The notes under the pieces: model-generated
Databases searched by the model: none
What the model saw: the letters and a program-made list of their open reading frames with translations, nothing else
Told to the model about the DNA's origin: nothing
Shown: positions 15,044 to 28,345 of the stretch, one piece after another
Numbering within the stretch: position 1 is the stretch's first letter
Layout of the letters: each line of letters opens with the position of its first letter
Made by a program: the position numbers and the translations under genes
IMG/VR virus record: IMGVR_UViG_3300028895_000298
Coordinates: 1-42,161 of that record
Direction: 5' to 3' (one strand)
Source: a virus
DNA length: 42,161 nt

Positions 15044-15237
15044 GCGCCCAGAACTACACCTTCCGCTTGACCGATGAGATCCTAAAATGGCTAGAGCGCA
15101 ACGGCCAGCCCAAGTCGAAACAACTGCGCCGCGACCTGGAGGCACTCCAGATGATCCGGAAGCTGGCGAAGCGCGACAAACAAAAGCACCTCTTGTTGCG
15201 GGACGTGGCCGAGGATTTCGGGTTGCTTGACGCTTGA
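15040..15237 (+). CDS. Small basic helical protein, unknown
   Basis: 65 residues from ATG 15040 with AAGGAGGAG upstream. It is basic and helical, starting MSAQNYTFRLTDEILKWLER and containing many Lys and Arg (RKLAKRDKQKH), which may suit nucleic-acid binding. The opening resembles small ribbon-helix-helix-like proteins (F.L.DE..KWLE) but is too short on evidence for a call. The -35 box of a strong sigma-70 promoter overlaps its stop codon. Confidence 0.5.
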   Translation: MSAQNYTFRLTDEILKWLERNGQPKSKQLRRDLEALQMIRKLAKRDKQKHLLLRDVAEDFGLLDA

Positions 15238-15262
15238 CACATTGATCCGGCCGGGTGATAAT
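15234..15262 (+). promoter_or_regulatory. Strong sigma-70 promoter (TTGACA-N17-GATAAT)
   Basis: TTGACA at 15234-15239, a 17-base spacer and GATAAT at 15257-15262. This is close to the consensus. The predicted start is near 15269. Directly at that point lies a dyad ATGAG-GTCCT-CTCAT (15261-15275) that could be an operator or a 5' hairpin. The transcript reads into the exonuclease gene at 15537. Confidence 0.75.
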
Positions 15263-15299
15263 GAGGTCCTCTCATGCTTCTTTCTCGTAGTTCTCGTAG

Positions 15300-15324
15300 G
15301 GCCTCGGAGTGACTCACCGGGGCC
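15300..15324 (+). other. Leader hairpin downstream of the 15234 promoter
   Basis: GGCCTCGG (15300-15307) pairs with CCGGGGCC (15317-15324) with one G-U pair and a nine-base loop. It is preceded by a tandem repeat TTCTCGTAG x2 (about 15282-15299) and followed by TTAC and then CTTT, so it is not a strong terminator. It lies in the 5' leader between the two promoters. Confidence 0.5.
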
Positions 15325-15337
15325 TTACACTTTCCGG

Positions 15338-15366
15338 TTGACAGACTGACCGCTTTCTGCGATCTT
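15338..15366 (+). promoter_or_regulatory. Second sigma-70 promoter (TTGACA-N17-GATCTT, extended -10)
   Basis: TTGACA at 15338-15343, a 17-base spacer ending in TGC, and GATCTT at 15361-15366. The TG one base before the -10 gives an extended -10 element that can compensate for the weak hexamer. Predicted start is near 15373, which is the first base or two of the A element of the leader RNA. Confidence 0.5.
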
Positions 15367-15371
15367 GGAAT

Positions 15372-15486
15372 CGGACCCATGATCAAACGACTGCAAAAAC
15401 TCGAAGTGGAAAAAGCGTAAGCGCCCCCGTCCGGTTTCCAGTTGGCATCCTGCCTGCATGGGTCCGGCCGGGCGGGGGTTGCTTTT
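15372..15486 (+). ncRNA. Leader RNA with 5'-end/terminator-loop pairing (copy 1 of 3)
   Basis: Element A, CGGACCCATG (15372-15381), is at the predicted 5' end. Element B, CCCCCGTCCGG (15424-15434), pairs with B', CCGGGCGGGGG (15468-15478), followed by TTGCTTTT. The loop between B and B' contains A', CATGGGTCCG (15457-15466), the exact complement of A, ending one base before B'. A-A' and B-B' interlock and with so short a link can hardly form together, so they should be alternatives. A 13-codon ORF starts in A (ATG 15379) and stops just before B. The hairpin lies upstream of the ribosome site of 15537. Confidence 0.6.
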
Positions 15487-15536
15487 GCGTGAATGTCAGA
15501 GGGGCGTGCAATCCTGTAACCAAAAGGAGGGAACCA

Positions 15537-16508
15537 ATGGAACCAACGACGCTAACGGATGAGCAGATCGAACTCAGGCGGGGCCGCATCACCGGCTCAC
15601 GGATCGCGGGGGTGTGCGGGCTTAGCCCGTGGTCAACGCCGCTTGATGTCTATCTGGAAATGCGAGGCGAGGGCCCGCCCCGGACAGTCAACAAGAACAT
15701 GAAGCGGGGGATATTTCTTGAGCCAGGGATCCGGAAGTGGGCCGCCGATTACACGGGCTTGAGAATTGAGAAGGCCAAGAAACCCGGCACGGTGATCCAC
15801 CCTGACTTTGACTGGATCGCCGCGAGTCCGGACGGGGTTGCATACGATGAGGGCAAGCCCGGCCAGCCCGTTGCCGCCATCGAAATCAAAGCGCCCGATC
15901 CCTACTCGCCCAGGATCCACGACTGGGGCGACCCGCTTGAGCAGGAGGATTCGATCCCGTCCTACGTGATCCCTCAGTGTATCTGGGAGGCCGCCTGCCT
16001 CGGGGTCCAGGAGACGATCTGCACCGCCCTGATCGGCGGGGACATCCGGATTTACCGGGTCGAGTTCAGGCAGAAGCTTTTCGATGTCATGGTGGATAAG
16101 GCCGCCTCGTTCTTGACCCTGGTTAAGGCCGGTACCCCGCCCCCGCTCGACGGCTCGGACTCGGCGGCCAGGTGGCTTGCAGACCAGTACCCAAATCACG
16201 TGGGCGTGACCTATCTCCAGGCCGACGATCAGATCATGGAGCACGTCGAGGGGCTCAAGAAGGTGACCGGGCAGATCAAGGAACTCGAAGCGTCAAAGCA
16301 ACTGGCGCAGAACATGATCAAAAAGTGGCTCGGTGAGAACCCGGGGTTGACATCGGCGCACGGTAAGATAAGTTGGAAAACAGCGACCCGGCGATCTCTA
16401 CAACAGAAAAAACTAGTCGAGTGGATGACGGCCAATCATCCCGAGGAGTTGAAGAAATTCTATGAGGAGAAATCAAGCCGGACTTTTCGCGTCCCAAGAA
16501 AGTGGTAA
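15537..16508 (+). CDS. YqaJ-type viral recombinase / 5'-3' exonuclease
   Basis: 323 residues; ATG 15537 with AAAAGGAGGG upstream (an in-frame start at 15489 lies before the ribosome site). The YqaJ/lambda Exo nuclease fold shows RITGSRIAGVCGLSPW (about 17-32), GIFLEPGIRKWAA with Glu62, SPDG with Asp99, the catalytic EIK at 116-118 and VIPQCIWEA with Gln147. The C-terminal 100 residues are helical, ending in KISWKTATRR and a basic tail as in phage YqaJ proteins. It degrades one DNA strand to make single-stranded 3' ends for annealing. The next gene is a putative annealing protein, the usual partner. Expression is likely controlled by the structured leader upstream. Confidence 0.88.
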   Translation: MEPTTLTDEQIELRRGRITGSRIAGVCGLSPWSTPLDVYLEMRGEGPPRTVNKNMKRGIFLEPGIRKWAADYTGLRIEKAKKPGTVIHPDFDWIAASPDGVAYDEGKPGQPVAAIEIKAPDPYSPRIHDWGDPLEQEDSIPSYVIPQCIWEAACLGVQETICTALIGGDIRIYRVEFRQKLFDVMVDKAASFLTLVKAGTPPPLDGSDSAARWLADQYPNHVGVTYLQADDQIMEHVEGLKKVTGQIKELEASKQLAQNMIKKWLGENPGLTSAHGKISWKTATRRSLQQKKLVEWMTANHPEELKKFYEEKSSRTFRVPRKW

Positions 16509-16531
16509 ACCCGAACCCAAGGAGGAGAGAG

Positions 16532-17647
16532 ATGTCGAACGGAAACGGAAAAGAGACAACCGATTTACAGACAATCGAGGAGCCGACCGCGCTTGCGGCC
16601 ATAACTCAGGGGGAGGTTGATGTCCAGGTAGCGACCGCCAAGCGCTACCCGCGGACGATCAGCAAGTTCCTGAAAGACGCGGAAAGCCTTGCCACGATTG
16701 ATCGAGCGACCGCCGACTCCTGCATGTATGCGCTACCCCGTGGCGGCAAGCTGATCCCCGGGCCAAGCATCAGGCTTGCTGAGATCATCGCTGGCACGTG
16801 GGGCAACCTTCGGATCGATGTGCGAATCCTGGACGAGGGGCGGACGCATGTTGTAGCACAGGCAACAGCATGGGACATGGAGGCCAACGTTCTGGTGCGG
16901 CAAGAGTCGCGCCGGCGAATCACCGACAAGAGTGGCAACCGATACAAGAGTGATATGATTATCATGACCGGCAATGCGGCGATCAGCATCGCAATGCGAA
17001 ACGCGATCTTCCGGGTCGTCCCCCGCTCGTTGGTCAACCGGCTTTACAATGCGGCCCGGGTCGTGGCGGTCGGTGAGGCGCGAACCATGTTCGAGCGCCG
17101 GGACTCAATGCTCAAGACATTCACGAAATTGGGCGTGTCCGAGGAACGGATCCTGGCGTCAATCGATTGCGAGGCCGTCGAGGACATCGACGCAGACGCC
17201 CTGGTCAAACTGCTCGGGGTCTTCAACGCCATCCGAGACGGCGGACTCTCCCCGGACGTGGCATTTCCACCTGTTGCGAGCGATGCCCCAGCCAACCCCA
17301 AAAGGGGCACCGATGCCGTGCTTGACGCCCTCAATGCCCCGGACGCTGGTCCTCAAGCCACCCCTGCCACGCAACCAGCACCAGAGGACCAAGCACCCCC
17401 GGATCCCCCGTCGGAGGGCTTAGACGGCCCGCAAACCGGTGCCGCGTGCGGCGATACGCAAGAGCCCATGACGCCGCTCAAGGAACTGCGGGGGCTCGGG
17501 GAACTCCTGGGCCTGCCCGAGGATGTGGTCGAGGACATCTTGGCGACCGAGAAAGTAAGCCATCGCTCCAAGGTCGCGGGTCAGCCGTACATCAGGGCGC
17601 GGGCGGCGATTGAGGCCGAAGGGAAGCGGTTGCGGAAAAAGGGTTGA
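16532..17647 (+). CDS. Putative single-strand annealing protein (recombinase partner)
   Basis: 371 residues; ATG 16532 with CAAGGAGGAGAGAG upstream. The N-terminal 230 residues form a compact alpha/beta domain (YPRTISKFLKDAESLATID; GPSIRLAEIIAGTWGNL; SDMIIMTGNAAISIAMRNAI) found in phages next to YqaJ exonucleases. The following 80 residues are a Pro- and Ala-rich linker (about 255-310), then a short helical C-terminal domain. A domain plus disordered linker plus C-terminal domain is common for annealing proteins that bind SSB. I recognise the family as a frequent exonuclease neighbour but not from a defining motif, so RecT/Erf/Sak-like function is inferred from synteny. Confidence 0.65.
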   Translation: MSNGNGKETTDLQTIEEPTALAAITQGEVDVQVATAKRYPRTISKFLKDAESLATIDRATADSCMYALPRGGKLIPGPSIRLAEIIAGTWGNLRIDVRILDEGRTHVVAQATAWDMEANVLVRQESRRRITDKSGNRYKSDMIIMTGNAAISIAMRNAIFRVVPRSLVNRLYNAARVVAVGEARTMFERRDSMLKTFTKLGVSEERILASIDCEAVEDIDADALVKLLGVFNAIRDGGLSPDVAFPPVASDAPANPKRGTDAVLDALNAPDAGPQATPATQPAPEDQAPPDPPSEGLDGPQTGAACGDTQEPMTPLKELRGLGELLGLPEDVVEDILATEKVSHRSKVAGQPYIRARAAIEAEGKRLRKKG

Positions 17648-17670
17648 CATGTCTCGGGGGGTTTGATAGT
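17644..17670 (+). promoter_or_regulatory. Sigma-70-like promoter with perfect -35
   Basis: TTGACA at 17644-17649 overlaps the stop of the annealing protein gene. The best -10 is GATAGT at 17665-17670 with a short 15-base spacer; at 17 bases the hexamer is the poor TAGTGA. Predicted start is about 17677-17680, next to element A of the leader RNA. The weak -10 could mean that it needs an activator. Confidence 0.45.
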
Positions 17671-17681
17671 GAAATAGCAAT

Positions 17682-17777
17682 GCACACGGCGATCCAAGAC
17701 AGAACCATAACTTTCCCCGTCCGTGGCCAGCGCGCCTCTTAGCCGTGTGCCGCCTGGTTGCGGGCGGGGATCTTTCT
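17682..17777 (+). ncRNA. Leader RNA with 5'-end/terminator-loop pairing (copy 2 of 3)
   Basis: Element A, GCACACGGC (17682-17690), is within about five bases of the predicted 5' end. Element B, TCCCCGTCCGTGGCCAG (17714-17730), forms 17 continuous pairs, four of them G-U, with B', CTGGTTGCGGGCGGGGA (17754-17770), followed by TCTTTCTT. The loop contains A', GCCGTGTGC (17742-17750), the exact complement of A, ending three bases before B'. The end of B' (GCGGGGA, 17764-17770) can instead pair with TCCCCGC (17778-17784), a competing hairpin upstream of the ribosome site. A 20-codon ORF starts at ATG 17680 and stops at TAG 17740-17742, at the edge of A'. Confidence 0.6.
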
Positions 17778-17800
17778 TCCCCGCATAGGAAGGAACGCGC

Positions 17801-18565
17801 TTGAAATCTCGACGCCACCGAGAGATCGATCCTGCCATCTGGACATCCGACGAGGACTTCATCAACCTATCCGATCAGGCCAAGCTTTTGTTCATCTACC
17901 TCTTGACGTGCCCGGCGATTGTCTACACTCCGGCCATCTATCGGCTGGCTCCGAGCACGGTAGTTTCGGACCTGAATTGGTCACGAAGGAAGCTTTTCCG
18001 TGCCTACCGTGAGCTACATGGAGGGGGTTTTGCTGCCAACACGGAGGGGGGTTGGAGGCATTCCCAGGTCATAGCGATCCCCCGAAGTACCAGTTTCCGG
18101 GCACCTAAGAACCGTGATCAGGCAGTACTGTGGCTCAAGATGGCACGGGAAGTGCCTCCTTGTGACTCGCGTAATGAGTTTATTCAATGGGTTATGAAAC
18201 GTATAGAGGAATTTGAGCATAAGACAGAGACGGAGACGGAGACGGAGACGGATACGAAACAGAAACAGAAAGGGCAAAAGAAGGCAGAAAAGGGTGATCT
18301 GTTGTTCGAGGCTTTCTGGTCTGAATATCCGCCCGTAGGATCTCCCCCAAGGCGAGCGGGAAAAGAGCCGGCTCGAAAGGCGTGGAAGAAAATCAAGCCG
18401 GAAATCGCAACGGTCGATGATGTAATCATGCCAGCACTCAGGACGCAAAAACAGGTTTTATGGAAAGACAAGGATCCGAAATACATCCCGCATGCTTCGA
18501 AGTGGCTAAACCAAAAGCTTTTTCTGGATGAAATAGTCGAACCACGGAAAGGTGAATTCCTATGA
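17801..18565 (+). CDS. Phage replisome organiser / replication initiation protein (lambda O-like)
   Basis: 254 residues from TTG 17801, supported by AGGAAGG seven bases upstream. The N-terminal domain (about 1-85) looks like a winged helix (LSDQAKLLFIYLLTCPA, then VSDLNWSRRKLFRAYREL). A charged linker contains an ET repeat encoded by (GAGACG)4. The C-terminal domain (about 165-250) has the FEAFWSEYPP, ARKAWKKI, IPHASKWLNQKLFLDE pattern shared by phage replication proteins that load a helicase. It overlaps the DnaB-like helicase gene by four bases (ATGA), the common initiator-helicase pairing. It should bind the phage origin, which may lie inside or near the linker-coding repeat as in lambda O. 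Confidence 0.75.
   Translation: MKSRRHREIDPAIWTSDEDFINLSDQAKLLFIYLLTCPAIVYTPAIYRLAPSTVVSDLNWSRRKLFRAYRELHGGGFAANTEGGWRHSQVIAIPRSTSFRAPKNRDQAVLWLKMAREVPPCDSRNEFIQWVMKRIEEFEHKTETETETETDTKQKQKGQKKAEKGDLLFEAFWSEYPPVGSPPRRAGKEPARKAWKKIKPEIATVDDVIMPALRTQKQVLWKDKDPKYIPHASKWLNQKLFLDEIVEPRKGEFL
18227..18256 (+). repeat. Hexanucleotide tandem repeat (GAGACG)4 plus GATACG
   Basis: Four exact copies of GAGACG (18227-18250) and one variant (18251-18256) encode the Glu-Thr linker of the replisome organiser. Tandem repeats inside the initiator gene recall the iterons of lambda ori within gene O, though these units are short and lack dyad symmetry. Confidence 0.75.
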
Positions 18566-22818: not shown

Positions 22819-23194
22819 GATCATCGAGCGTAAAGATCTACTATTGCAGTTGCTCGATAAACTGGACTCGGCCGAAGAGGACGCCAAGGCGGCGAGGGAT
22901 CGGCACAAGTCCATCATTCAGGGATTCGAGGCTGGTATAGTCTCGGCACGCGCCGCGCTACGTACCAACATGGAAAAGCGCCCGGTGCTCTGCGATCAGC
23001 ACTTTGACCACACCAAGCAAACGGTTGAGGTATTCCGAGCCGACACCGGGGCGCGGGTTCACGAGCGGGCGATGCTGCCGAGCGAAAAGCAAACGACCCT
23101 TGACGAAAAAGTCGCAGACGCCAAAAAGAAAGCCGGGGGAAAGACAGAGGCCAAGGGCAACGTGCTGCCGATGACGGCGCCGACGGGGAAGTGA
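22673..23194 (+). CDS. Conserved phage coiled-coil protein, unknown
   Basis: 173 residues from GTG 22673, preceded by GAGGAGATGGAAC. The first 45 residues, which overlap gene 22477, are low-complexity (S, K, P, T), then comes a coiled coil (about 48-100). It continues with a segment with CDQHFDHTKQTVEVFRADTG and ARVHERAMLPSEKQ (about 110-145), and a Lys-rich tail. The 'E..R.DTG....RAM...E' pattern is familiar from phage early proteins that lie near recombination genes. It overlaps the methyltransferase start (GTGA). Function unknown. Confidence 0.65.
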   Translation: MNKSKEPSGISKSTPNSPAKDAASVTKRKPEVRKKSATLSLPCKLSKAEIIERKDLLLQLLDKLDSAEEDAKAARDRHKSIIQGFEAGIVSARAALRTNMEKRPVLCDQHFDHTKQTVEVFRADTGARVHERAMLPSEKQTTLDEKVADAKKKAGGKTEAKGNVLPMTAPTGK

Positions 23195-24048
23195 AGCGCT
23201 TGAATGTCGGATCGCTATTCACGGGAATCGGGGGTTTCGATCTTGGATTCGAAGGAACAGGATTCAAGATCGCATGGCAGGTTGAGCATGACAAATTCTG
23301 CAACGAACTCCTGCAAGCCAAGTGGCCAGGCGTCAAGCGATATGGAGACATCCGCGAACTCGCCAAAGAAACACCGGAAGCAGTTGATCTTGTTTGTGGA
23401 GGTGACCCCTGTCCTTCGAGATCTAACGCCAAAGGAAACAGTCCGTCAGCCCATCCCGATCTTGCCGGATACTTCCTTGCCGTGGTCGGGCGATTACAAC
23501 CACGATGGGTGGTCCGCGAGAATGTACCTGCACCAGATGCTATCGACTTCGCGGCCGGACTGGAAACCCTCGGATACAGAGTCGTTGCTTTCGAACTCGA
23601 CGCTAGAGATTTCACGAGTCAGAGTAGACGGCGGCATATCTTTGTCGGAAGTTCTGGAGAAAGAGCCACCCGATTCAAGCGAGCATTACTTGACGCCCAA
23701 GATGGTGCTGGGATTGGCACATCGAGCCCTCAAGAGACAACGCCCATTGCAGCGTGTGTTACTGCGCACCCCGCAAGGATGGCGGCGGAGGACAGTTATT
23801 GTTGGGAGCCCTGTACAGACGCAGTCCTCCTCAAATGCCAGCCGCCATCCGGACAAGAAACCGGAAACTACCTTTACCAAGGCGGGAGATTACGTGTTCT
23901 CACTCCTGAAGAGTGTGAGGGTCTCCAGGGATTCCCCAGAGGCTGGACTACTGGATTTTCTCGCTCGCGCCGTCGAGCAATGCTTGGCAACGCAATCCCG
24001 GTCCCGTTCGCCGAATTCGTCGGAAGACTGATAAAGGAGATTGAATGA
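23191..24048 (+). CDS. DNA (cytosine-5-)-methyltransferase, phage Dcm type
   Basis: 285 residues from GTG 23191. C5-methyltransferase motifs in order: motif I SLFTGIGGFDLGFEGTG (8-24), motif IV GGDPCPSRSNAKG with catalytic Cys74, motif VI RENV (109-112), motif VIII QSRRRH (144-149), and a C-terminal LTPEECEGLQGFPRGW then LGNAIPVPFAEFVG (motifs IX-X). The target recognition region is short (about 155-230), as in small phage enzymes. Third-position GC is low: my hand count for 23401-23820 gives about 49%, against clearly higher in the next gene. The whole body of the gene is also open in the +1 frame (23204-24031). No cognate restriction gene is near, so protection against host restriction or regulation is likely. 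Confidence 0.88.
   Translation: MKRLNVGSLFTGIGGFDLGFEGTGFKIAWQVEHDKFCNELLQAKWPGVKRYGDIRELAKETPEAVDLVCGGDPCPSRSNAKGNSPSAHPDLAGYFLAVVGRLQPRWVVRENVPAPDAIDFAAGLETLGYRVVAFELDARDFTSQSRRRHIFVGSSGERATRFKRALLDAQDGAGIGTSSPQETTPIAACVTAHPARMAAEDSYCWEPCTDAVLLKCQPPSGQETGNYLYQGGRLRVLTPEECEGLQGFPRGWTTGFSRSRRRAMLGNAIPVPFAEFVGRLIKEIE
23204..24031 (+). CDS. Candidate overprinted gene nested in the cytosine methyltransferase (+1 frame)
   Basis: 275 codons without a stop, starting 13 bases after the methyltransferase start and ending 17 bases before its stop. It is the longest same-strand out-of-frame ORF in the genome. By hand count over 23401-23820 its third-position GC is about 63%, higher than the 49% of the methyltransferase frame, so codon choice looks better in this frame. 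The product has protein-like segments: SGDYNHDGWSARMYLHQMLS (about 93-112), ISLSEVLEK and HYLTPKMVLGLAHRALKR (about 160-178). The last resembles a helical 'SPKA..GILRRA.KR' motif that I recall in phage proteins linked to Dcm genes. No strong ribosome site is visible; coupling to the 23191 start is possible. Function unknown. Confidence 0.5.
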   Translation: MSDRYSRESGVSILDSKEQDSRSHGRLSMTNSATNSCKPSGQASSDMETSANSPKKHRKQLILFVEVTPVLRDLTPKETVRQPIPILPDTSLPWSGDYNHDGWSARMYLHQMLSTSRPDWKPSDTESLLSNSTLEISRVRVDGGISLSEVLEKEPPDSSEHYLTPKMVLGLAHRALKRQRPLQRVLLRTPQGWRRRTVIVGSPVQTQSSSNASRHPDKKPETTFTKAGDYVFSLLKSVRVSRDSPEAGLLDFLARAVEQCLATQSRSRSPNSSED

Positions 24049-24473
24049 TCATCCTCGCCATAGACCCCGGCGACCCCGCAGGCTGGGCCAAGTTCATCGG
24101 CGGCGAATACGACGGCTCGGGCACCATCAACGGCGACTCGCCCAGCGTTGCCCGGGATCTCCTCATCGCCCTGGGCCCGGATGTCCTGGTGCTCGAAGAC
24201 CAGCACCCGGGCAAAAGCGGCTGGAAATCCCTGCGGACCCTGATGCGCCGGCGGTTCATCTGGGAGGTCGTCGCGGAACTCGAAGGCGTCGAGGTGCACC
24301 CGATGGACCCGTCGACGTGGCAGGGGTTCTACCGGCTCAAGAAAGGCAAGCACGCGCCCAAGATGGTCGAGCAGTATTCGCCGTTGGCCAGCGCGTTGAT
24401 CGGGCGTGAGGTCTGGGGGGATGAGGCGGCGGCGATCCTGATGGGCATGTGGGGCGTCACGAATTGCACTTGA
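24045..24473 (+). CDS. RuvC-like Holliday junction resolvase (RNase H fold)
   Basis: 142 residues; ATG 24045 overlaps the methyltransferase stop (ATGA), with AAAGGAGATT upstream. The acidic residues of an RNase H fold are in place: Asp7 in ILAIDPGD, Glu51 in VLVLEDQ, and Asp126/Glu127 in WGDEAAAILMG. The length is typical for phage RuvC-like enzymes. It should cut four-way DNA junctions formed during recombination or before packaging and so complements the YqaJ and annealing proteins. Codon third positions are very GC-rich, unlike the preceding gene. Confidence 0.8.
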   Translation: MIILAIDPGDPAGWAKFIGGEYDGSGTINGDSPSVARDLLIALGPDVLVLEDQHPGKSGWKSLRTLMRRRFIWEVVAELEGVEVHPMDPSTWQGFYRLKKGKHAPKMVEQYSPLASALIGREVWGDEAAAILMGMWGVTNCT

Positions 24474-24498
24474 CACGGTCAACCCCGTGAGATAAAAT
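24470..24498 (+). promoter_or_regulatory. Strong sigma-70 promoter (TTGACA-N17-TAAAAT)
   Basis: TTGACA at 24470-24475 (overlapping the resolvase stop), a 17-base spacer and TAAAAT at 24493-24498. Predicted start of transcription is about 24505, three bases before element A of the leader RNA. It should drive 24622 and 25274 and perhaps the genes beyond. Confidence 0.75.
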
Positions 24499-24507
24499 TG
24501 CTTCAGA

Positions 24508-24610
24508 TGACAGTCTTGGCAAACCAGAAAAAACAAGTTCACCTCCCCCTCCCCCGATCGGGACTCTCTGCCAAGACTGTCACCCGATCGGGGCGAGGGG
24601 AAGGTGTTTT
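24508..24610 (+). ncRNA. Leader RNA with 5'-end/terminator-loop pairing (copy 3 of 3, best formed)
   Basis: Element A, TGACAGTCTTGGCA (24508-24521), begins about +4. Element B (24540-24562) pairs with B' (24583-24606) in a 22-bp helix with one bulge (24594) and one mismatch (24545/24601), followed by TTTT (24607-24610). Both arms contain the palindrome CCCGATCGGG. The 20-base loop carries A', TGCCAAGACTGTCA (24569-24582), a perfect 14-base complement of A ending exactly where B' begins. The 5' end of B (CACCTC, 24540-24545) is also the complement of GAGGTG (24611-24616), the ribosome site of 24622. An ORF of 36 codons starts at ATG 24507 and ends at 24617. Transcription and translation control are both possible. 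Confidence 0.7.
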
Positions 24611-24621
24611 GAGGTGAGGAC

Positions 24622-25287
24622 ATGGCGACGAAAAAAACCCAAGTACAGATCGCAAGACCGGTCAGGAAAACTATGATCGTGGAGATCGAGGGAATCACCC
24701 CCTTGATCCACGAAAGGTTCTCCGACAAGTCTAAAAAGCAGATGGCCGACAAGCACGCGCAGAAAGCCAAGGCGGGCAGGCCGAAGCGGGATCCAGAGCA
24801 AGACTTCCGTGATTCTCTGATCGTCTTCAAGCGAGACAAAAAGGGGCGGCCGACCAAGTACGGGGTCAAGGCTCAGTGGCTCAAACTGGCTATGGCATTT
24901 GTGGCCAAGGAAGACAAGGAAGGCACCCGGGTTTATCGCAACGTGCAGGTAGGAAAGACCCTTTTCCCCGATGAACTCCTGCCTCTCGTTATCAAGAACG
25001 GCGATCCCCACATGCGTATCGGAGAGGATGGAAACCCAGGCGACACGGTGCGGAATGCGAACGGCAGCGCAGATATTCGCTACCGGGGTGAGTTCTCCCC
25101 GGGTTGGCGGGTCAAGGTCCCCATCACTTTCAACTCCAACAGGATCTCCGAAGAGCAGATCCTTGCATGGCTTGACGAAGCTGGGACCGCCAGCGGGATC
25201 GGTGGATGGCGCCCACAAAAGGGCGGGCAGTGCGGAATGTTCAGAATCGTAGAGGGAAACGGAGGCAAGCACCGTGGCAAGAAGTAA
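24622..25287 (+). CDS. Conserved phage protein, unknown (Gly-rich C-terminus)
   Basis: 221 residues from ATG 24622 with GAGGTGAGG upstream. The N-terminal part has a beta strand and a HERFSDKSKKQMADKHAQKA segment (about 30-50). The middle has YGVKAQWLKLAMAFV. Then follow SADIRYRGEFSPGWRVKVPI (about 150-170) and a C-terminal GIGGWRPQKGGQCGMF (about 192-207). I recall this family from many phages next to genes like 25274, without known function. The glycine-rich G.GGWRP..GG..GMF end is reminiscent of Gly-rich loops in RAMP/Cas7-like folds, but this is only a resemblance. It is the gene controlled by the best-formed leader RNA. Confidence 0.65.
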   Translation: MATKKTQVQIARPVRKTMIVEIEGITPLIHERFSDKSKKQMADKHAQKAKAGRPKRDPEQDFRDSLIVFKRDKKGRPTKYGVKAQWLKLAMAFVAKEDKEGTRVYRNVQVGKTLFPDELLPLVIKNGDPHMRIGEDGNPGDTVRNANGSADIRYRGEFSPGWRVKVPITFNSNRISEEQILAWLDEAGTASGIGGWRPQKGGQCGMFRIVEGNGGKHRGKK

Positions 25288-25750
25288 ATACACAACTAGG
25301 GACGGGGGCCGGATCAATCCGAAAAGAATTCATATCTACGCCAACGCCCTGAAGAAAATAGAACGGAGCGGACCATTGACAGCCGAGCGGGTTGTCGAAA
25401 TCGCCAGTAATTCAATCCACCCGCTTCATGAGTGCTTTGAGTGGGACGACGACAAGGCCGCCAATGCTTATCGCCTTTGGCAAGCCCGCAATCTGATCGC
25501 GAGCGTCCTTATCGAAATCTCTGATACCGAAGACGAAGAACCACCCCGGGCATTTCTGAACGTGGTGACATCTCAGGGCAGGGAATATGTTTCAGTTGAG
25601 CGGGCGATGTCAGACGCCGAACTGCGAACGCAGGTAATCCAGGAAGCAGCGGGGCGCCTGGCATATTGGCGGAAAGCCTACAAGCAATTCAAAGAACTGG
25701 CTGAGATCTTCGGAGCAGCGGAGCGGAAGGCGCGGAAGATCGCCAAATAG
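25274..25750 (+). CDS. Conserved phage protein, unknown (partner of 24622)
   Basis: 158 residues from GTG 25274, with GGAGGCAAGCACC upstream, overlapping the previous gene by 14 bases. Motifs: a helical LTAERVVEIAS, then HPLHECFEWDDDKAANAYRL and WQARNLIASVL (about 52-82), then a helical C-terminus with WRKAYKQFKELAEIF. The LH..FEWDD..AA..YRL.QAR.LI pattern is a familiar phage family usually found close to the 24622 type. No catalytic motif seen. The acidic pair could suit DNA mimicry or a structural role. Confidence 0.65.
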   Translation: MARSKYTTRDGGRINPKRIHIYANALKKIERSGPLTAERVVEIASNSIHPLHECFEWDDDKAANAYRLWQARNLIASVLIEISDTEDEEPPRAFLNVVTSQGREYVSVERAMSDAELRTQVIQEAAGRLAYWRKAYKQFKELAEIFGAAERKARKIAK

Positions 25751-26020
25751 GCAGGAGTGGAACGAATTAGAGCGGAACAATTGGAGGCCACGGGACTGGA
25801 TTGGCAGGAGAGGAACGCAACGGAGAGAATGGGAGCGGAGCGGATGGGAAAGGCCGGAGAGGAGAGAGCGAAGCGAAGCGGAGCAGATTGAAATGGAGCG
25901 GATAGGATGGGAGGGCAGCGCAGTGGAAGGGCCGGATAGAAGAGGGGAGAGGATGGGCAAGGACAGGAGAGGCAGGACATGGCAAGGCAAGGCACGGCAA
26001 GGCAAGGCAAGGGATATCTT
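25751..26020 (+). repeat. Purine-rich degenerate repeat tract without a gene
   Basis: About 270 bases with strong purine excess on the + strand, made of degenerate GGAGCGGA, GGAGAGGA and finally GGCAAGGCAAGGCACGG units. The + strand carries no credible ORF and the minus-strand ORFs are Pro/Leu/Ser low-complexity shadows. The periodicity is about 5 bases at the 3' end (GGCAA). The last unit AAGGG sits at ribosome-site distance from ATG 26021. It may form triplex or G-rich structures, be a replication or packaging element, or be an untranslated RNA. Confidence 0.75.
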
Positions 26021-26119
26021 ATGAGACTTGATCGAGAATCCAAACTCCTGATTTTGGCCATCCTTCTCGAAGTGCTGGCGTTTATCTTGGTGAGCTACCT
26101 TCTGGAGTGGATGCCATGA
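26021..26119 (+). CDS. Very small single-pass membrane peptide
   Basis: 32 residues, starting directly after the purine tract with AAGGGAT upstream. After a charged start (MRLDRESK) it is a hydrophobic helix (LLILAILLEVLAFILVSYLL, residues 9-28) ending EWMP. The stop overlaps the methyltransferase start (ATGA). Small membrane peptides of this kind are common in phages but seldom annotated. It could act on host membranes or only couple translation to the next gene. Confidence 0.45.
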   Translation: MRLDRESKLLILAILLEVLAFILVSYLLEWMP

Positions 26120-27462
26120 CGCTACTCAATGGAGATTGTCGAGAGATCTTGCCCACCCTGGAAGACAACTCAGTTGACGCCATTGTCACGGATCCACCTG
26201 CGGGAATTTCATTCATGGGGAAAAAATGGGACAGCGACAAGGGAGGGCGGGACACCTGGATCGCTTGGCTGGGATCAATCATGGCGGAATGCATGCGGGT
26301 ACTCAAGCCCGGGGGTCATGCTTTTGTGTGGGCGCTACCACGGACAAGCCACTGGACAGGGACAGCGATTGAAAACGCAGGGTTTGAGATCCGTGATTCG
26401 TTTCACCACATATTCGGGAGTGGATTTCCTAAATCGCTGGATATAAGCAAAGCGATAGACGCAGCGGCGGGGGCGGAGAGGGAGGTGGTTCAGGAACGCA
26501 AAGGGCCAAAGCCCGGGGACCACGGGGGATCTGGACACTATGGTCACGGCGAAGATCGATCCATAACCACCCCCACCACCCCCCAAGCCAAGCAATGGAA
26601 CGGCTGGGGGACAGCCGCCAAGCCCAGTCATGAAGTCTGGTGGCTAGCCCGCAAGCCTTTCCCCGGGACCGTTGCAAGCAATGTACAAGAATGGGGAACG
26701 GGGGGAATCAATGTTGCAGCGTGTCGAGTGGGGACGGCAGAGAGGTACAACCAGCCAGCGACAGCGGCAAAAGACACATTCAACGCAAGTCCCGGAAGCG
26801 GGATTGATTACACGGGCCAAGAAGTTGCTGGCCGATGGCCCCCCAACCTACTCCTAACCCATTCCCAAACCTGCCATGCGATAACAGAGGGACCGAACAA
26901 GGGATGGAACTGCGCCCCTGATTGTCCAATAAGGGAAATGGATCGACAGAGTGGGGAGAGTGTGACACCTGCGTTTGTGACGCGAGGCGTAGGCAGAATG
27001 TGGAAAGAGGGGGGTGGCCTTTGTAATAAGGCAGAGAATCAACCATGTTCGGACACCGGCGGAGCTTCCCGTTTCTTTCCCTGTTTCAAATACTGCCCCA
27101 AGCCTAGCAGGGCTGAGAGGGAGCAAGGCTGTCAGGGGTTGCCCAAGAAATCAGCGGGGGAATGCACCGACAGGGAAGACGGATCGGCTGGGCTGGATTC
27201 TCCCCGGGCGGGAGCGGGCAGGACTTCAGGCGCAAGCAACAATCACCCAACGGTCAAGGCAAGCGAGTTGATGTGCTGGCTCATAAGGCTGATCACGCCC
27301 CCCGGGGGCACTGTCTTGGATCCTTTCATGGGTTCAGGCTCAACAGGAATTGCAGCGCACAAAGAAAGCTGCGGCTTCATAGGCATTGAGATGAATCCTG
27401 ATTATTTCCGAATTGCAGAAGCAAGGATCAAAGACGCCACCAAGCAAGGGAGGCTGTTTTGA
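26116..27462 (+). CDS. Site-specific DNA N6-adenine/N4-cytosine methyltransferase
   Basis: 448 residues; ATG 26116 is chosen over GTG 26107 because of the ATGA overlap and GGAG at the right distance. The catalytic motif IV is TDPPAGISFMGKKWD (25-39, DPPA in place of the more usual DPPY). MRVLKPGGHAFVWALPR follows (about 64-80). Near the C-terminus LDPFMGSGSTGIAA (about 401-414) is the SAM-binding motif I, so the order is IV before I (beta class). The middle has a Cys- and Gly-rich variable target recognition region (about 200-340). With the Dcm it makes two methyltransferases and no nuclease, typical of anti-restriction modification. The target site cannot be told. Confidence 0.88.
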   Translation: MTLLNGDCREILPTLEDNSVDAIVTDPPAGISFMGKKWDSDKGGRDTWIAWLGSIMAECMRVLKPGGHAFVWALPRTSHWTGTAIENAGFEIRDSFHHIFGSGFPKSLDISKAIDAAAGAEREVVQERKGPKPGDHGGSGHYGHGEDRSITTPTTPQAKQWNGWGTAAKPSHEVWWLARKPFPGTVASNVQEWGTGGINVAACRVGTAERYNQPATAAKDTFNASPGSGIDYTGQEVAGRWPPNLLLTHSQTCHAITEGPNKGWNCAPDCPIREMDRQSGESVTPAFVTRGVGRMWKEGGGLCNKAENQPCSDTGGASRFFPCFKYCPKPSRAEREQGCQGLPKKSAGECTDREDGSAGLDSPRAGAGRTSGASNNHPTVKASELMCWLIRLITPPGGTVLDPFMGSGSTGIAAHKESCGFIGIEMNPDYFRIAEARIKDATKQGRLF

Positions 27463-28042: not shown

Positions 28043-28294
28043 ATGTTCCGTCAACGCAGCGGATTCGGTCGCCCGGGTGTTGGCTGGTGGATGGTCGTCG
28101 CGATCGAGGACACGTATTATCGGGCAACCCGGATCACCGTGGAGACTGCAAACAAGCTTGGGTACCAGCGGACGTGCTTGTTTACCGACTGGCCGGGCCT
28201 GTGGTTGCTTAGACCGTTCAAAGGGACTCAGCACACCTTGTCAGTAAGAGAGCAGACAGAGGAGGATCAACGAGTGGCGGTAGGCGAATGGTAA
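28043..28294 (+). CDS. Possible small protein overlapping the tRNA
   Basis: 83 residues from ATG 28043 (AGGTGG just upstream, short spacing), or about 65 from an internal ATG. The sequence looks protein-like (WWMVVAIEDTYYRATRITVE; LFTDWPGLWLLRPFKG) and codon third positions are GC-rich. The competing ORF 27990-28247 has a Ser/Arg/Cys-rich shadow composition. The last 21 bases overlap the 5' part of the tRNA, which is unusual and lowers confidence. Function unknown. Confidence 0.4.
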   Translation: MFRQRSGFGRPGVGWWMVVAIEDTYYRATRITVETANKLGYQRTCLFTDWPGLWLLRPFKGTQHTLSVREQTEEDQRVAVGEW

Positions 28295-28345
28295 GCCGCC
28301 TGGTTGTGGACCAGGTACATGTGAGTTCAAATCTCATCCGTCACC
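28274..28345 (+). tRNA. tRNA-His (anticodon GTG)
   Basis: The cloverleaf can be drawn completely. The acceptor arm is GTGGCGG/CCGTCAC with one G-U pair. The D arm is GGC/GCC with loop GAATGGTAA. The anticodon arm is CCTGG/CCAGG with loop TTGTGGA (anticodon GTG). The variable loop is TACAT, and the T arm is GTGAG/CTCAT with loop TTCAAAT. The discriminator is C, the identity base of bacterial tRNA-His; G-1 is not encoded (A at 28273) and 3' CCA is not encoded. It is the only tRNA I found. Confidence 0.9.

What the first reader, a model, noticed from the sequence alone, without database searches (positions are those of the whole stretch)
15338..17800. The same interlocked leader architecture occurs three times in front of early genes
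The leaders before 15537 (A 15372-15381, A' 15457-15466, B 15424-15434, B' 15468-15478) and before 17801 (A 17682-17690, A' 17742-17750, B 17714-17730, B' 17754-17770) repeat the order of the leader before 24622. All three have a TTGACA promoter, element A within about five bases of the predicted start, A' ending 0-3 bases before B', and a T-rich end after B'. The A sequences differ completely, so structure rather than sequence is conserved. B of copies 1 and 2 share CCCCGTCCG. The units precede the exonuclease, the replication initiator and the 24622 gene, that is, the main early functions. This looks like an undescribed family of phage attenuators or small regulatory RNAs.
Basis: partly seen in the sequence, partly recalled or inferred. 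Interest (0 to 1): 0.9.

Follow-up and report, generated by a model that had tools for sequence, protein, structure and literature searches.

The report
5'-terminal pseudoknot leaders of phage genes
Three early genes of this uncultivated phage start with an RNA whose very first bases fold back in an interlocked two-helix (pseudoknot) order; two other viruses carry the same design with different letters, so the shape is kept, probably as an on/off switch in which a tiny reading frame at the RNA's start and the fold compete.

Summary
Coordinates are right, and the three leaders are the three best A-B-A'-B' elements of the whole 42-kb window on either strand; none of 1,500 shuffles of any leader reaches its score. 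A relative contig (exonuclease 76% identical) has the same element before its exonuclease, with compensatory changes, and before its replication initiator, with unrelated RNA sequence but a related promoter. A sixth copy stands before a vipr-family gene in an unrelated virus. About 2.3 Mb of other viral DNA gave no further promoter-locked copy. Element A always begins within a few bases of the predicted transcript start. Rfam has no match. The T-rich end is missing in 2 of 6 copies, so 'attenuator' is not a defining trait, and the shared CCCCGTCCG is not conserved. New: in all six an ATG sits at the transcript's 5' end, overlaps A and opens a leader ORF. Best guess: translation of this leaderless ORF competes with A:A' and B:B' (a permuted 1:3/2:4 leader switch). 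The 24622 gene is a Vipr (CRISPR-RAMP ancestor) with its vap gene and a GGANN repeat array, an incidental find. Function is inferred, not shown.

The parts
15338..15366 (+). copy 1 promoter: TTGACA, 17-nt spacer ending TGC, -10 GATCTT (extended -10)
15371..15381 (+). copy 1 element A; its last three bases are the leader ATG
15379..15420 (+). copy 1 leader ORF MIKRLQKLEVEKA*, stops 2 nt before B
15423..15436 (+). copy 1 element B
15457..15467 (+). copy 1 element A'
15466..15479 (+). copy 1 element B', followed by TTGCTTTTG
15537..16508 (+). YqaJ/RecE-like exonuclease gene behind copy 1
17644..17672 (+). copy 2 promoter: TTGACA, 17-nt spacer ending TGA, -10 TAGTGA
17680..17742 (+). copy 2 leader ORF MHTAIQDRTITFPVRGQRAS*, ATG at predicted +1, stop at the start of A'
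17682..17690 (+). copy 2 element A
17714..17730 (+). copy 2 element B
17742..17750 (+). copy 2 element A'
17754..17770 (+). copy 2 element B', followed by TCTTTCTTCC
17801..18565 (+). replication initiation protein gene behind copy 2
   Evidence: phrog_270 E 3e-15
24470..24498 (+). copy 3 promoter: TTGACA, 17 nt, TAAAAT
24507..24617 (+). copy 3 leader ORF, 36 codons, spans the whole element and stops 4 nt before the 24622 ATG
24508..24521 (+). copy 3 element A
24540..24562 (+). copy 3 element B (11-bp core, then 6 bp and 5 bp); the stretch TTCACCTC 24538-24545 can also pair with the SD GAGGTGAG 24611-24618
   Evidence: outer 5 bp by eye and seen in the folds
24569..24582 (+). copy 3 element A'
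24583..24606 (+). copy 3 element B', followed by TTTTG
24622..25287 (+). vipr homologue (phrog_4652, RAMP fold) behind copy 3
25274..25750 (+). vap-candidate gene (phrog_15946); a relative is found in 72 of 80 vipr loci, in most about 0.6-0.8 kb after the vipr start
25750..26012 (+). period-5 GGANN/GGCNN array, vrRNA-like, with GGCAGGA boundaries

Best explanation
Each element is a cis-acting early-gene leader RNA. Transcription starts at or just before element A. The first bases carry an AUG that starts a very short, leaderless or near-leaderless leader ORF, and this AUG lies in or touches A. As RNA polymerase moves on, A' appears and pairs with A, which hides the AUG. B' then appears directly behind A' and pairs with B, giving a long hairpin and, with A:A', an interlocked pseudoknot that the free 5' end can thread. 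A ribosome that starts early on the 5' AUG occupies A and then runs through or up to B, so neither helix forms and the downstream gene is expressed; without it the fold closes, and the gene is held down by B:B' (as an intrinsic terminator where a U-tract follows; by loss of coupling or by covering the SD in the vipr leader). It is a leader-peptide switch with the pairing permuted to 1:3 and 2:4. Shown: the elements, their order, position, non-randomness and conservation across three viral lineages, and the presence of the ATG/ORF. Inferred: pairing in vivo, leaderless translation, and the direction and size of the effect.
For: Non-random elements. Same architecture in L002 before the exonuclease, with the A pair C-G changed to T-A and the B stem changed on both strands, and before the initiator, where the promoter aligns at 70% against 48% for shuffles but the RNA at 50% against 47%. 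Sixth copy before a vipr gene in L091. No other exact-TTGACA, -10-bearing hit of comparable score in 1.36 Mb, and only further contigs of the L091 virus in another 0.91 Mb. A begins 33-39 nt after the start of TTGACA in all six, that is at about +1. Nested ensembles: A:A' pairs at 0.84-1.0 when A' is out, then B:B' at 0.92-1.0, in all six. First ATG 7-14 nt after the -10 in 6 of 6; joint chance by shuffles 1.6e-5, and 23% of comparable promoters have it. In both vipr leaders the leader ORF spans the element and stops at the vipr start (4-nt gap; ATGA overlap). Structure near the start codon is reported to lower leaderless translation strongly in some species (PMC9031893).
Against: No transcript, ribosome or structure data. 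The ATG pattern was noticed after the fact; c1 and L002a are homologous, so there are about five independent cases. Leader peptides are not conserved. Stops fall at different places (before B, after B, at A', at the gene). c1, L002a and the 15234 promoter would leave about 5-7 nt before the AUG, at the edge of 'leaderless'. U-tract absent in L002a and L091. A:A' and B:B' do not overlap, so they are not exclusive on paper. Only three lineages are known.
Confidence: 0.4

Rival explanations
1. 5'-end seal: the pseudoknot ties up the 5' terminus so that RppH/RNase E or RNase J cannot start decay, making early mRNAs long-lived. The leader ATG would be incidental.
For: A begins within a few bases of the predicted start in all six, which is what a 5' seal needs; sequence is free as long as it pairs; BsRppH needs at least two unpaired 5' nucleotides (PMC3997798). 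Independent of U-tracts.
Against: A simple 5' hairpin would do, so the second interlocked helix is unexplained; does not predict the 5' ATG or the ORF stops at the vipr start.
Confidence: 0.22
2. Protein operator: a phage protein (for example Vipr itself or a DNA-metabolism protein) binds the pseudoknot and represses exonuclease, initiator and vipr, as T4 gp32 does on its own mRNA.
For: T4 gp32 recognises a 5'-terminal pseudoknot (PMC535899); the vipr gene has a structured leader in the window, in L091 and in 12 other viral loci.
Against: No unpaired sequence is shared between the copies by eye; most vipr loci have no such leader (8 of 80 have one); vipr is not visible in the short L002 contig.
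Confidence: 0.15
3. Plain transcription attenuator or terminated small RNA, without a role for translation.
For: L002b ends in a strong terminator (stem then TTTTTT); tails of c1, c2 and c3 are T-rich; one search lists 17750-17767 and 15465-15481 as terminator-like.
Against: No U-tract in L002a and L091; in the consensus scan terminator-like sites are no more frequent than in shuffles (16 against 22.0).
Confidence: 0.12
4. Cotranscriptional topological timer: A:A' closing first bars the long B:B' helix from winding because the 3' end is held by RNA polymerase, so the order of folding alone sets read-through.
For: Both helices approach or exceed a turn; A' lies 0-5 nt before B'; predicted order A:A' then B:B' in all six.
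Against: Purely physical argument, no precedent tested here; needs B:B' to matter in copies without U-tract.
Confidence: 0.06
5. Chance inverted repeats or DNA-level repeats.
For: Inverted repeats are common in phage intergenes; unrelated contigs also hold GGACCCATG inverted repeats.
Against: sequence-unrelated recurrence in L002b and L091.
Confidence: 0.03

Closest known systems
Leader-peptide transcription attenuators (trp/ilv type, including leaderless leader peptides; from own knowledge, with PMC7298713 and PMC11857589 listed only as leads, not read)
   Same: Short leader ORF at the transcript start, four paired segments, terminator-like last hairpin in some copies
   Different: Pairing is 1:3 and 2:4, not 1:2, 2:3, 3:4; no run of control codons; U-tract not constant
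IncI-alpha ColIb-P9 repYZ pseudoknot and leader peptide (Asano and Mizobuchi 1998, seen only as a reference in PMC10286972)
   Same: Pseudoknot and leader ORF upstream of a replication initiator; in I-complex plasmids translation of the leader peptide is needed for initiator expression
   Different: No antisense RNA seen here; pseudoknot at the 5' terminus with long helices; also before an exonuclease and vipr
T4 gene 32 mRNA operator pseudoknot (PMC535899)
   Same: 5'-terminal pseudoknot on a phage mRNA for a DNA-metabolism protein
   Different: The T4 fold is about 28 nt with an adjacent UUAAA-rich region; here 9-22 bp stems and no shared unpaired motif
HK022 put RNA (own knowledge; one search found no paper)
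   Same: Cis RNA right behind early promoters
   Different: put is two hairpins in a row, not interlocked
VIPR vrRNA tail (PMC13142463)
   Same: Pseudoknot RNA near vipr
   Different: No YNNGG repeats in the leaders; the array of this phage lies downstream at 25750-26012

Membership tests
Intrinsic-terminator attenuator | GC stem followed at once by a U-tract | tested here: inconclusive
   Strong in L002b, moderate or weak in c1, c2 and c3, absent in L002a and L091
Intrinsic-terminator attenuator | Mutually exclusive antiterminator sharing bases with the terminator | tested here: not met
   A:A' and B:B' share no bases apart from 1-2 nt in copy 1
Leader-peptide switch | Short translatable ORF at the 5' end overlapping the alternative structures | tested here: met
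   6 of 6, (presence only, translation untested)
Leader-peptide switch | Ribosome position decides the fold | not testable with these tools
   Needs ribosome profiling or mutants
T4 gp32-type operator | Bound by the gene's own protein, cooperative spread into an unstructured RBS | not testable with these tools
   Needs binding or footprinting assays
HDV-like ribozyme | Nested double pseudoknot with P4/J4-2 between P1' and P2' | tested here: not met
   A'-B' gap only 0-5 nt; no Rfam hit
VIPR vrRNA | 9-16 YNNGG (GGY/NN) repeats | tested here: not met
   Repeat scan finds none in the leaders; only 25971-26008 in the window
Any Rfam family | Gathering-score match | tested here: not met
   (gathering; window, L070, L024, L065, L069, L091); by E-value gave nothing near gathering
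Vipr protein (24622 gene) | Homology to Vipr and RAMP fold | tested here: met
   36pp_D E 1.9e-11 by profile, 1.2e-5 by single sequence; Foldseek top hits Cas7/Csm3-type RAMP chains E 7e-6

The most novel reading that the evidence does not exclude
A new class of phage leader switch: a leaderless leader-ORF start codon is the 5' arm of a long, end-threaded pseudoknot (1:3/2:4 pairing), reused with free sequence in front of exonuclease, replication initiator and the RNA-guided Vipr gene, so that early genes are gated by whether a ribosome loads on the nascent 5' end.
Probability: 0.3. Interest if true: 0.8.

Novelty: new variant of a known kind. Interest (0 to 1): 0.6.

Why it matters
Structure-only conserved leaders escape sequence- and Rfam-based searches. 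If the switch model holds it adds a pairing scheme (1:3/2:4) to transcription/translation coupling, ties it to leaderless initiation in phages, and links it to a gene of the newly described VIPR RNA-guided systems. If the 5'-seal model holds, it would be a phage pseudoknot counterpart of protective 5' RNA structures. Either way simple reporters can decide.

Tried and rejected
Exact pattern search for copy 1's A/A' in all viral contigs returned L002 plus three contigs with unrelated inverted repeats. Searches for relatives with the 24622 protein, helicase, annealing protein and initiator mostly failed, or reached only L002 as a carrier of the element; the exonuclease alignment was too diverse to search with. 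No nucleotide relative in the phage collection. The leaders as vrRNAs: rejected, no repeats. The window itself as a target of the phage's own array: no match better than shuffled guides. HDV-like ribozyme: rejected on topology. L027, L008 and L065 hits of the detector: no usable -10; L008 is not in an early-gene leader by its annotation and L027 lies in a region of longer minus-strand ORFs, so treated as chance. CCCCGTCCG as a motif: not kept in L002.

Full report
Check. The three leaders were re-read and their helices recomputed. A search of both strands of the window for A-B-A'-B' pairs with an A'-B' gap of at most 4 ranks exactly these three first (sums 66, 64, 59.5; next 48.5). In 340 local dinucleotide-preserving shuffles the mean number of hits with sum >= 59 is 0.006 per strand. 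Each leader shuffled on its own 1,500 times never reached its score.

Relatives. The IMG/VR contig L002 (7.9 kb, exonuclease 76% identical) has the element twice. Before its exonuclease region A is TGGACCCATG (2985-2994/3057-3066) and B is 3025-3037/3067-3079: the second pair of A changes from C-G to T-A and the B stem differs on both strands and still pairs. Before its initiator A is 5699-5713/5761-5776 with one bulge and B is 5730-5748/5782-5800 followed by TTTTTT. Compared with window copy 2 the promoter aligns at 70% identity against 48% for shuffles, the RNA at 50% against 47%: similarity stops at the transcript start while the architecture stays. A sixth copy lies before a vipr-family gene in L091 (A 3453-3464/3510-3521, B 3474-3492/3525-3543, TTGACA-17-TATATT). 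Scanning 1.36 Mb of viral loci for TTGACA-type promoters with such an element at the start returned these six at the top, together with one exact-TTGACA hit without a usable -10 (L027) and 5-of-6 hits without a usable -10 (L008, L065); a further 0.91 Mb returned only other contigs of the L091 virus. Apart from L002 these loci were chosen mostly for vipr or initiator homology, so they serve as a background set.

Anatomy. Distance from TTGACA to A is 33-39 nt in all six, which places A at about +1. A is 9-15 bp, B 11-22 bp, A'-B' gap 0-5 nt, the A-B spacer 9-41 nt (A-rich in several copies by eye), the B-A' spacer 6-20 nt, and B' to the start codon 18-72 nt. In copy 3 the outer arm of B (TTCACCTC) can also pair with the SD of the 24622 gene. 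In nested-structure ensembles A:A' dominates (0.84-1.0) once A' is transcribed and B:B' (0.92-1.0) once B' is complete, in all six. Pseudoknot energies were not computed. MFE z-scores range from -2.0 to -6.8.

Leader ORFs. In every copy the first ATG after the promoter lies 7-14 nt after the -10 and overlaps A: in A's last three bases in c1 and L002a, and starting 1-2 nt before A in the others. The joint chance from shuffles is 1.6e-5; among 207 comparable promoters in the fetched loci 23% have an ATG there. The ORFs have 13, 20, 36, 7, 17 and 37 codons. In both vipr leaders (copy 3 and L091) the ORF runs through the whole element and stops at the vipr start (4-nt gap; ATGA overlap). This pattern was found after the fact, c1 and L002a are homologous, and the peptides are not conserved, so it is suggestive, not proof.

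Mechanism. The reading that covers most facts is a leader switch in which ribosome loading at a 5'-terminal AUG competes with A:A' and B:B'. Structure around the start codon has been observed to lower leaderless translation strongly in some species (PMC9031893). Termination cannot be the general output, because the U-tract is missing in L002a and L091. The 5'-seal rival explains why A sits at +1 (PMC3997798) but not the second interlocked helix or the ATG. A protein operator like that of T4 gene 32 (PMC535899) remains open. None of these mechanisms was tested experimentally.

The 24622 gene. It belongs to phrog_4652, matches the solved SUSP1 Vipr protein (profile E 1.9e-11; single sequence 1.2e-5), and its predicted model (pLDDT 85.6) matches Cas7/Csm3-type RAMP chains. 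VIPR systems are described in PMC13142463. The window also has a vap-like gene (25274-25750, phrog_15946; a relative occurs in 72 of 80 vipr loci) and a period-5 array of GGANN/GGCNN units (25750-26012), so it appears to hold a VIPR locus whose third base is mostly A instead of the published Y; whether that variant is already covered by the paper's 'related consensus' could not be checked. Most vipr genes do not have the A-B-A'-B' leader (8 of 80 have one at relaxed thresholds, most of them a different, more elaborate RNA), so the leaders are not a general VIPR part.

A second RNA. Twelve vipr loci (L024, L065, L067, L069, L070, L071, L075, L077, L078, L088, L093, L104) share a leader of roughly 120 nt with GAGCTTC, two interlocked helices, and the SD in B'. 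On a sequence-only alignment of 11 of them 92% of cells pair and 14 of 30 pairs show two-sided changes; no shuffle reaches the two-sided change counts or the covariation score, and slid controls fall to 33-45% paired. It has no Rfam match in the four members scanned. It has the same A-B-A'-B' order but extra helices; whether it is homologous or convergent is open.

Limits. Host unknown; no transcript data; three lineages; the function assignment is inference.

Noticed in passing
window 24622-26012: Apparently complete VIPR locus: vipr homologue, vap-like gene, and a period-5 repeat array whose consensus is mainly GGANN rather than GGYNN, with GGCAGGA boundaries.
   Followed up: partly
L024, L065, L067, L069, L070, L071, L075, L077, L078, L088, L093 (about 120 nt before the vipr match), L104 2409: Conserved covarying double-pseudoknot RNA (GAGCTTC) with the Shine-Dalgarno of vipr in its last helix; no Rfam match in the members scanned; a candidate translational switch of vipr.
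   Followed up: partly
window 15234-15328: Another strong promoter (TTGACA-17-GATAAT) with a near-leaderless ORF MLLSRSSRRASE* ending inside a 12-bp hairpin (15296-15328), just upstream of copy 1.
   Followed up: no
window 17773-17795: Separate 8-bp hairpin TTTCTTCC/GGAAGGAA that would cover the Shine-Dalgarno of the initiator gene.
   Followed up: no
L091 3391-3422 (approximate): Inverted repeat TTGTCAAC...GTTGACA over the -35 region of the vipr promoter, operator-like.
   Followed up: no
window 24508-24521 and L091 3453-3521: A of copy 3 resembles A' of L091 and vice versa (GTCTTG/CAAGAC core), as if the stem arms were swapped; may be chance.
   Followed up: no
window 23191-24048 and 26116-27462: Two DNA methyltransferase genes (C5 and N4/N6 type), on either side of the VIPR locus.
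   Followed up: no
window 28274-28345: A tRNA gene (Rfam RF00005, 59.9 bits) shortly upstream of the terminase genes.
   Followed up: no
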